This document shows, piece after piece, positions 6,441 to 31,331 of a stretch of 64,000 nucleotides of DNA. Position 1 is the stretch's first letter; the number at the start of each line of letters is the position of its first letter. The stretch is from NCBI RefSeq assembly GCF_003261055.1, contig NZ_CP030073.1, positions 310,001 to 374,000 of the forward strand, in the 5' to 3' direction. The position numbers and the translations under genes were made by a program. Below the pieces are notes generated by a model. The model did no database searches. It saw nothing but the letters and a program-made list of their open reading frames with translations, and had not been told where the DNA came from. Source of the DNA: Streptomyces cadmiisoli. GTDB taxonomy: Bacteria > Actinomycetota > Actinomycetes > Streptomycetales > Streptomycetaceae.

Positions 6441-26216
<19,776 letters not shown>

Positions 26217-26273
26217 AAGGCTGCTGAAAATCTCGGGTTCTGGCCCCGGCTCGGTGGAGTTGGGGCCAGTCTT

Positions 26274-27860
26274 GTGAGCATGCAGGGGGAATGGGCTGGG
26301 GAGTTGGTCGGGCCGGATGTGTGGGAGACCTGCCGGGAGTTGATCCCGGCCGGGAGTGTGTTCGCGTTCCTGGCCGAACATCGCGAGGCGCTGTTCCCGC
26401 CGTCGATGTTCGCGGACATGTATCCCTCGTCCAACGGGCGGCCGAGTCTGCCGCCGCAGGTGCTGGCCGCGACGGTGGTGTTGCAGAGCCTGCAGGGGCT
26501 GTCGGATTTCGAGACGGTCCAGGAACTGCGGTGTGACCTGCGGTGGAAGGCCGCTTGCGGGCTCGGGCTGTACGACATGGCGTTCGATCCGTCGCTGCTG
26601 ACGTACTTCCGGCGTCGGCTGCGTCATTCGGCCGATCCGATGCGGATCTTCACCAAGGTCAAAGAGGTCGTGGCCGCGACCGGTGTGCTCAAGGGCAGGC
26701 AGCGGCGGGCGCTGGACTCCACCGTGCTCGATGACGCGGTGGCCACCCAGGACACCGTCACCCAGATCATCTCCGCGATCCGCCGGGTGATCCGCGAGGT
26801 TCCCGGCGCGGAGGAGGTGGCCGCGGGGCACTGCCGGGCGCACGACTACACCGACCCGGGCAAGCCGAGGATCGCCTGGGACGACGAGTCGGCCCGCGCC
26901 GCGCTGGCCGACGCGCTGGTCACCGACGCCCTCAACCTGCTCGGGCGCCTGCCCGAGCAGAACCTGGGCGAGAAGGCGGCGAACGCGGTCGGCCTGCTGG
27001 CCCTGGTCGCCGGCCAGGACGTGGAACCCGCCGAGGACTCCGACGGGCGCGATGGCCGCTGGCGTATCGCGAAGCGCACGGTGGCGGACCGGGCGGTGTC
27101 CACCGTCGACCCCGACACACGGCACATCCACAAGAACCGCACCCGTCACCAGGACGGCTTTAAAGGGCATGCGTCTTTCGAGCCGGAGACCGGCCTGTTC
27201 ACGGCCGTCGCCCTGACCAGCGGCTACGGTCCCGACAATCACGAGGCCGCCGTCGCCTGCGAACTTCTGGAGGGGGAGGACGGCGAGTTAACCGTGCTCG
27301 GCGACTCTGCCTACGGCACCGGGGACCTGCGCGCACAACTGCAGGCCGACGGCCACACCCTGGTGATCAAGCCGCCACCGCTGCGGCAGGCCGTCCCCGG
27401 TGGCTACACCATCGATGATTTCCGTATCGACCAGGCCGCCGGCACCGCAACCTGCCCGGCCGGACACACCGCCAACCTCGGCCAGATCAAGGCAGGCAGC
27501 GCCCGCACCGCCCAGTTCAAGCGCGCATGCACCGGCTGTCCCCTGCGAGAGCGCTGCACCACCTCCAAGACCGGACGCACCCTCAACGTCCACCCCCACT
27601 ACGAGCTGCTGGCCGCCGCCCGGTCACAGGCCGCCACCGACGTCGGCTGGCAGGACGAATACCGCCGATGGCGGCCACCTGTCGAACGCGCCATCGCCTG
27701 GCTCGTCGCCAAGGGCAACCGCCGGGTTCCCTACCGAGGCGTCATCGCCAACAACATCTGGCTCCACCACCGCGCCGCCGCTCTCAACCTCCGCCGACTG
27801 ATCACCCTCGGACTCACCCGCACCAACACCACCTGGCACCTCGCCCCTGCCACCGCATAG
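26274..27860 (+). CDS. IS1182-family transposase
   Basis: A 528-aa DDE transposase that would mobilise the surrounding element. The N-terminal region (ELIPAGSVFAFLAEHREALFP, then PSLPPQVLAATVVLQSLQGL) matches the IS1182 N-terminal domain. The central part has HKNRTRHQDGFKGH and the second acidic segment TVLGDSAYGTGDLR. A Cys-containing insert (TGCPLRERCT) follows, and the C-terminus has RPPVERAIAWLVAKGNRRV with the third acidic residue. GTG 26274 gives MSMQGEW; an ATG two codons later is an alternative. Full length for the family with no frame lesions, so probably active. A GC-rich hairpin follows the stop. Confidence 0.92.
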   Translation: MSMQGEWAGELVGPDVWETCRELIPAGSVFAFLAEHREALFPPSMFADMYPSSNGRPSLPPQVLAATVVLQSLQGLSDFETVQELRCDLRWKAACGLGLYDMAFDPSLLTYFRRRLRHSADPMRIFTKVKEVVAATGVLKGRQRRALDSTVLDDAVATQDTVTQIISAIRRVIREVPGAEEVAAGHCRAHDYTDPGKPRIAWDDESARAALADALVTDALNLLGRLPEQNLGEKAANAVGLLALVAGQDVEPAEDSDGRDGRWRIAKRTVADRAVSTVDPDTRHIHKNRTRHQDGFKGHASFEPETGLFTAVALTSGYGPDNHEAAVACELLEGEDGELTVLGDSAYGTGDLRAQLQADGHTLVIKPPPLRQAVPGGYTIDDFRIDQAAGTATCPAGHTANLGQIKAGSARTAQFKRACTGCPLRERCTTSKTGRTLNVHPHYELLAAARSQAATDVGWQDEYRRWRPPVERAIAWLVAKGNRRVPYRGVIANNIWLHHRAAALNLRRLITLGLTRTNTTWHLAPATA

Positions 27861-27866
27861 CGAAAA

Positions 27867-27896
27867 GGGCCGCCCGGCCTACGGCCGGACAGCCCC
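27867..27896 (+). terminator. hairpin after IS1182 transposase
   Basis: CCGGCC-TAC-GGCCGG at 27874-27888, extended by GGGC/GCCC outer pairs, begins about 7 nt after the transposase stop and lies inside the element. It is probably the transposase terminator. On the opposite strand it would add a barrier to transcription of the 3' half of NRPS2. Confidence 0.55.
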
Positions 27897-27908
27897 ACAA
27901 CAAGATTT

Positions 27909-31331
<3,423 letters not shown>

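What the first reader, a model, noticed from the sequence alone, without database searches (positions are those of the whole stretch)
26213..27923. A recent, apparently intact IS1182-type insertion silences a 12-module NRPS
The element has 17-bp perfect terminal repeats and an intact transposase, and is flanked by CTAG on both sides. Deleting the IS and one CTAG joins ...CGC GAC GGA CTA to GAC GAG TTC in frame, giving one continuous condensation domain. Everything downstream keeps its catalytic motifs. The strain probably carries a silent pathway that precise excision would restore.
Basis: seen in the sequence. Interest (0 to 1): 0.78.

Follow-up and report, generated by a model that had tools for sequence, protein, structure and literature searches.

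The report
Jumping gene splits peptide synthetase gene
A small mobile element that inserts at the four-letter site CTAG has landed in, and cut in two, a giant peptide-making gene of an actinobacterium, while relatives still carry the gene whole.

Summary
Window 26217-27919 is a 1,703-bp IS1182-family element with 17-bp perfect inverted repeats, an open transposase frame and CTAG on both sides. It interrupts the second gene of a two-gene, 12-module NRPS (5 + 7 modules) at the start of the module-7 condensation domain. Five relatives encode an uninterrupted protein of 7,697-7,854 aa; in Actinacidiphila glaucinigra the empty site has the same length, with CGAG where this strain has CTAG, so CTAG is a 4-bp target duplication. 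I see no decay: the long half has no stop, dN/dS is 0.27 on both sides and in the partner gene, and core motifs correspond to those of the intact relatives. Three identical element copies also suggest recent movement. Beyond the finding: the element's relatives sit at CTAG (57 of 58 readable ends), the hit site is the only internal CTAG in 39 kb of NRPS coding sequence, and both element ends carry a conserved palindrome just inside the repeat; the one first met on the NRPS strand resembles a terminator. Loss of product, and restoration by precise excision, are inferences; no transcript, metabolite or same-species locus could be examined. An ordinary kind of event, unusually clean.

The parts
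26217..27919 (+). IS1182-family insertion element, 1,703 bp
   Evidence: Sequence; 3 identical full copies in the genome; NF033551 333 bits
26213..26216 (.). left CTAG, one copy of the 4-bp target duplication
   Evidence: relative has a single CGAG at this place
27920..27923 (.). right CTAG, second copy of the target duplication
26217..26233 (+). left 17-bp terminal inverted repeat
27903..27919 (-). right 17-bp terminal inverted repeat
26240..26269 (+). left subterminal palindrome (13-bp stem, 4-nt loop), just upstream of the transposase frame
   Evidence: Covarying in 20 distinct left ends: 98.8% of cells paired, 7 of 13 pairs with changes on both sides, 0 of 500 shuffles as high
27867..27895 (-). 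right subterminal palindrome (13-bp stem) followed on the - strand by TTTT: terminator-like for transcripts arriving from NRPS2-N
26274..27860 (+). transposase ORF, 528 aa, convergent with the NRPS genes
27909..31331 (-). NRPS2 N-half: module 6 (C-A-T) plus roughly the first 45 residues of the module-7 C domain (my estimate), then three junction/element residues and TGA
6441..26213 (-). NRPS2 C-half: rest of module-7 C domain, modules 7-12, thioesterase; open frame of 6,590 codons without stop
31403..47413 (-). NRPS1, 5,336 aa, modules 1-5; its TAG stop lies in the only other CTAG of the NRPS coding sequence
26202..26204 (-). first in-frame start (GTG) after the element; start of the database prediction P0126 (6,587 aa); no evident Shine-Dalgarno sequence upstream

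Best explanation
A CTAG-targeting IS1182-family element transposed recently into a Leu-Asp junction (CTA-GAC) of the 7-module gene NRPS2, duplicating the 4-bp target. Shown: element, duplication, empty site in a relative, interruption of the frame by a TGA inside the element, no visible decay on either side. Inferred: the product of the pathway is lost, because module 6 can no longer pass its chain to module 7 and no thioesterase is attached to modules 1-6; transcription entering from NRPS2-N is probably also stopped by the palindrome just inside the element; the event is young. Why there: the site was the only CTAG inside 39 kb of NRPS coding sequence, the other being the stop codon of NRPS1.
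For: Ends, CTAGs and frame. Three identical 1,711-bp copies in the chromosome. A. glaucinigra encodes NRPS1 (5,328 aa) and NRPS2 (7,714 aa) uninterrupted, with CGAG and equal length at the site. Five intact orthologues of 7,697-7,854 aa, continuous at the point (5 of 5). dN/dS against A. glaucinigra 0.271 (N-half), 0.270 (C-half), 0.271 (NRPS1). Private substitutions at columns invariant in the other five: window 12 of 856 (N-half) and 90 of 4,500 (C-half), none a gap; the five intact orthologues 1.9-6.0% and 2.0-6.7%. Motifs of 6 C, 6 A, 6 T and TE present in the C-half. CTAG at 57 of 58 readable element ends over 40 loci. CTAG in NRPS coding: 2 sites, against 36 (dinucleotide) to 110 (base) expected. 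Terminator-like hairpin.
Against: No expression or chemistry data. No same-species copy of this locus, so age is relative only; identical element copies could reflect gene conversion. dN/dS against a distant relative cannot detect a short period of relaxation, and by segments of up to 550 codons it ranges 0.18-0.40 in the C-half and 0.16-0.39 in NRPS1. The window's C-half private rate (2.00%) is no lower than that of P0121 (1.98%). The terminator scan is a consensus match (2 found, 0.7 expected in shuffles). The downstream frame is open into the element up to GTG 27242, so weak translation of a fusion or of a GTG-26204 product cannot be excluded.
Confidence: 0.87

Rival explanations
1. The two halves work as separate proteins: the downstream half is made from its own start and the split condensation domain still functions in trans.
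For: The C-half frame is fully open, keeps the HHxxxDH motif of the split C domain (residue 99), and a database gene prediction gives a 6,587-aa protein from GTG 26204. No sign of decay.
Against: The start has no evident ribosome-binding site, no promoter-like site was found in 26000-28200 (sigma-70 type only), and the split separates roughly the first 45 residues of the C domain (estimated). A terminator-like hairpin precedes it.
Confidence: 0.05
2. The insertion is old or fixed in the species, and the halves look intact only because decay is slow.
For: Among the 120 proteins listed none that is intact is 90% or more identical to the query region, so no intact same-species copy was seen; the window's own cluster P0126 has 11 member sequences, whose make-up is not shown.
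Against: No stop in 6,590 codons, no gap at invariant columns, private substitution rate at or near the lowest of six sequences; three element copies without a difference.
Confidence: 0.12
3. Assembly artefact: the repeated element was placed in the wrong spot.
For: The element is multicopy, and a protein of what seems to be another assembly of the same or a near-identical strain (P0293) differs in NRPS1, showing that these repeats may be hard to assemble.
Against: The three full copies have different flanks, each with CTAG on both sides; the genome is in 2 contigs, one of 9.27 Mb; frame and site match the relatives.
Confidence: 0.03

Closest known systems
IS1182 family (ISPse1 of Paracoccus; 1,653 bp, 16/16-bp repeats, 4-bp duplication; PMC3281130, passages seen)
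   Same: Similar length and repeat length, 4-bp duplication, IS1182 family by transposase model
   Different: Target sequence of ISPse1 is not given in the passages seen; here it is CTAG
ISPsy36, IS1182 family, inserts in hrpR of Pseudomonas syringae pv. actinidiae; target GGCC (PMC8027508, passages seen)
   Same: 1,666 bp, palindromic 4-bp target, gene inactivation by insertion
   Different: Target GGCC, not CTAG; the CTAG-targeting ISPsy32 in that paper is an IS630-family element
IS1272 / TnSha1, IS1182 family of staphylococci (PMC5678879, PMC4923244, passages seen)
   Same: Family and preference for palindromic targets
   Different: IS1272 replaces hairpins without target duplication; here a fixed 4-bp site is duplicated and nothing is lost at the site relative to A. 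glaucinigra
piggyBac transposon (PMC7351741, passages seen)
   Same: Works-like comparison only: palindromic 4-bp target duplicated, terminal repeat plus an inner palindromic repeat
   Different: Different target (TTAA) and, from general knowledge, different transposase family; seamless excision is reported for piggyBac, not shown here
Actinacidiphila glaucinigra CGMCC 4.1858 NRPS pair, contig NZ_FZOF01000027.1
   Same: Orthologous two-gene 5 + 7 module system, NRPS2 86-90% identical in protein
   Different: Uninterrupted; module-1 adenylation domain of another type; no neighbouring genes in common above 79% DNA identity in the 80 kb compared

Membership tests
IS1182 family | Transposase scores above the curated family cut-off | tested here: met
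   NF033551 333 bits, cut-off 270
IS1182 family | Terminal inverted repeats around a transposase ORF | tested here: met
   17-bp perfect repeats, 528-aa transposase ORF
IS1182 family | Short target duplication (4 bp in ISPse1) or palindromic target | tested here: met
   CTAG both sides; equal-length empty site in a relative; 24 of 25 two-ended loci with CTAG on both sides
IS1182 family | Transposase is active | not testable with these tools
   Identical copies suggest recent activity; no transposition assay
IS1272-type hairpin-replacing members | Insertion into hairpins with partial target loss and no duplication | tested here: not met
   4-bp duplication and no loss relative to A. glaucinigra
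Modular NRPS | Repeated C-A-T modules with core motifs and a terminal thioesterase | tested here: met
   Pfam domains; 12 A, 12 T, 1 TE motif; motif patterns recalled
Silent, restorable gene cluster | No product now; product returns on precise excision | not testable with these tools
   No expression or chemistry data; not tested

The most novel reading that the evidence does not exclude
The element belongs to a CTAG-specific IS1182 lineage of streptomycetes built on the same plan as piggyBac: palindromic 4-bp target, short terminal repeat and a structure-conserved palindrome at each end. Because its target is palindromic, excision could rejoin seamlessly, so insertion in a rare CTA leucine codon would act as a reversible off-switch for the synthetase, and the end palindromes would insulate the element from transcription on both sides.
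Probability: 0.1. Interest if true: 0.65.

Novelty: new member of a known kind. Interest (0 to 1): 0.36.

Why it matters
It gives a concrete reason why a large, otherwise well-kept 12-module synthetase may yield no product in this strain, and names an uninterrupted orthologue (A. glaucinigra) in which the peptide can be looked for instead. It also shows how a target rule shapes damage: CTAG is so rare in this GC-rich coding sequence (2 sites in 39 kb) that such an element should seldom hit genes internally, and this is a case where it did. The CTAG rule and the two end palindromes give a testable description of an IS1182 subgroup in streptomycetes.

Tried and rejected
Promoter in or near the element that could drive the downstream half: none found by the sigma-70 scan, which does not cover other promoter types. 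Rfam match in 26000-28200: none. Other strains: the genome set holds one genome per species; of 392 genus genomes the own genome and six others (69-72% identity) matched the 2.5-kb stretch, and of 394 family genomes the own genome, one of those six, and G506 at 89%. G506 has the same contig number and near-identical coordinates as G001 (A. glaucinigra), so I take them as one genome. Dating by the member count of cluster P0126 (11) was dropped: clustering at 90% may include fragments of other species. Element in G001: no match. Neighbour synteny: only window 6405-48215 aligns to the 80 kb of the A. glaucinigra contig compared (blocks above 79% identity and 300 bp); of the flanking window ORFs the best non-NRPS match there is 68% over 72 aa.

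Papers: eight searches of open-licence PMC; ISfinder cannot be searched here. One search found one paper holding both 'IS1182 family' and 'CTAG', where CTAG belongs to an IS630 element. The listings shown by the others (20 of 771, 15 of 63, 15 of 640, 12 of 51; all of 2, 1 and 7) showed no CTAG-targeting IS1182 element and no report of this cluster, but I opened only seven papers and saw passages of each, so absence from print is not shown.

CTAG count: 40 loci examined; 58 ends were readable (within 4 mismatches of the repeat and not cut), 57 with CTAG; the exception is L143 left. L117 and L142 were left out as duplicates of L002 and L003, and L004 as the mirror of L005. Several of the 40 are truncated and gave one end or none. 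L123 and L144 may be one insertion seen on two contigs. In one search only 2 candidates per genome were scored, so 25 of 246 genomes (own included) is a lower bound. The palindrome alignments use 20 of 23 left and 23 of 25 right ends from the 27 loci given to (identical ones dropped).

Full report
What is there. Positions 26217-27919 hold a 1,703-bp element with 17-bp perfect inverted repeats, flanked by CTAG at 26213-26216 and 27920-27923. The ORF 26274-27860 (+) is an IS1182-family transposase by NCBIfam (333 bits, cut-off 270) with Pfam DUF772 and DDE domains. The genome (10.24 Mb in 2 contigs) carries three identical full copies, a 963-bp piece at mirrored places about 113 kb from both ends of the 9,269,371-base contig, and two copies of a 77%-identical element (contig length). 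The window lies 310-374 kb from one end of that contig.

The gene it hit. NRPS1 (31403-47413, -) has five modules; NRPS2 follows on the same strand and is cut in two: 27909-31331 (module 6 and, by my estimate, the first ~45 residues of the module-7 condensation domain) and 6441-26213 (the rest, modules 7-12 and thioesterase). Over both genes I count 12 adenylation, 12 carrier and 1 thioesterase motif (motif patterns recalled). Reading from the N-half into the element gives Glu-Gly-Cys and then TGA.

The empty site. In A. glaucinigra CGMCC 4.1858 both genes are uninterrupted (5,328 and 7,714 aa), and the DNA at the site matches the window flanks with a single CGAG in place of the two CTAGs and equal length. 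Among the 120 proteins listed (756 scored), five of 7,697-7,854 aa are 83-88% identical to the first 1,000 residues of the C-half; all five run straight through the insertion point. CTAG is therefore best read as a target duplication and not as part of the element's ends.

No visible decay. Against A. glaucinigra, dN/dS is 0.271 for the N-half (1,137 codons), 0.270 for the C-half (6,574) and 0.271 for NRPS1 (5,315); segments of up to 550 codons range 0.18-0.40 in the C-half and 0.16-0.39 in NRPS1. At columns invariant in the other five sequences, the window differs at 12 of 856 (N-half) and 90 of 4,500 (C-half), with no gap; the five intact orthologues differ at 1.9-6.0% and 2.0-6.7%, the lowest C-half value being P0121's 1.98% against the window's 2.00%. 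These tests would miss a short time of relaxation, so 'recent' means recent against species divergence. The three identical element copies agree with it.

Why this site. Around the element's copies and relatives (loci from 25 of 246 sampled genus genomes, own included, and six plasmid records; not every locus has a readable end) CTAG stands at 57 of 58 readable ends, and on both sides in 24 of 25 loci with two readable ends. CTAG is strongly depleted in the NRPS coding sequence: two sites in 39,195 nt against 36-110 expected. One is the stop codon of NRPS1 (31403); the other is the insertion site, a CTA leucine codon, of which the two genes have 7 among 1,650 leucine codons. One other full copy (L002) sits at the TAG that ends an open frame of 352 codons. 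I infer that the target rule tends to steer the element away from gene interiors, and that the NRPS was hit at its only internal target.

The element's ends. Just inside each terminal repeat is a palindrome with a 13-bp stem. In 20 distinct left ends 98.8% of cells pair, 7 of 13 pairs show changes on both sides, and none of 500 shuffles reaches any measure; sliding the partner by 1-3 columns drops pairing to 29-51%. In 23 right ends 99.0% pair (shuffles 97.0%), with only 3 pairs changed on both sides, so the covariation case is weaker there. Shuffles ignore relatedness, so the numbers are not probabilities. On the NRPS strand the right palindrome is followed by TTTT and looks like an intrinsic terminator (fold -35.2 kcal/mol, z -2.8). 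I infer that the palindromes insulate the element from outside transcription or serve as symmetric transposase sites; the data fit either. For the NRPS this means a likely transcriptional stop on top of the translational one.

Could the downstream half work alone? The frame is open into the element up to GTG 27242; the first start after the element is GTG 26204, chosen by the database prediction P0126 (6,587 aa). I see no Shine-Dalgarno sequence before it (GCAGCCTTCTAGACGAGTTC), and no promoter-like site was found. The product would lack the start of its first condensation domain. I give this 5%.

Comparison with what is known. IS1182 is described as heterogeneous, with some members targeting palindromes (passage in PMC5678879). 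ISPse1 makes 4-bp duplications (PMC3281130), ISPsy36 has target GGCC (PMC8027508), and IS1272 replaces hairpins without duplication (PMC4923244 and PMC5678879). The present element agrees with the duplicating members and not with IS1272. In its palindromic 4-bp target plus inner palindromes it resembles piggyBac, whose seamless excision follows from complementary TTAA overhangs (PMC7351741, passages); that excision here is seamless is a guess.

Verdict. Inactivation of bacterial genes by insertion elements is an ordinary kind of event, also around natural-product pathways and in Streptomyces (an IS in comP of Bacillus licheniformis, PMC2727956, and in the SalI genes of S. albus J1074, PMC4018334; one passage each). 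What makes this one useful is the clean empty site, the intact orthologues, and the target rule that explains the place.

Noticed in passing
window 31403-47413, NRPS1 modules 1 and 2 (A domains around 45565 and 42358): The two adenylation domains share about 977 nt with 2 mismatches, inside a 3.55-kb module alignment that is 88.6% identical overall: looks like recent gene conversion. Orthologues carry at least three A-domain types in module 1 (P0241 DVW; P0242, P0243, P0291 and window DIH; P0244, P0245, P0248 DAAGC), so module 1 may be a natural swap point.
   Followed up: partly
P0293 (3,688 aa, contig of 45,142 bases) against window NRPS1: A protein 100% identical to NRPS1 over the 1,100 residues searched, but without one of modules 1/2 and ending early: another assembly of the same or a near-identical strain, with repeat collapse or a real one-module deletion. 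P0291 (Streptomyces sp. NPDC004111, 4,293 aa) is also one module shorter.
   Followed up: partly
window 6405-48215 against A. glaucinigra contig: The NRPS2 C-half is 88% identical in DNA, while vWA/MoxR genes of the window (57951-60736) are 75-78% identical to that genome's copies, which lie on another contig: the NRPS pair has possibly been exchanged horizontally.
   Followed up: partly
window NRPS1 module 5 C domain, near 34168: The condensation motif reads HHLVQDR in place of HHxxxDG, in both window and relative.
   Followed up: no
window 1059-5050 (+): A free-standing adenylation protein and a C-T protein lie next to the NRPS genes on the other strand; on the relative's 80 kb their long matches are to NRPS domains at about 38% identity or less; possibly a separate small NRPS system.
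   Followed up: no
own genome, P0209 (5,605 aa): A second NRPS on the same 9.27-Mb contig is 65% identical to the first 1,000 residues of the interrupted gene's C-half, with several listed relatives of about 5,560-5,650 aa in Streptomyces.
   Followed up: no
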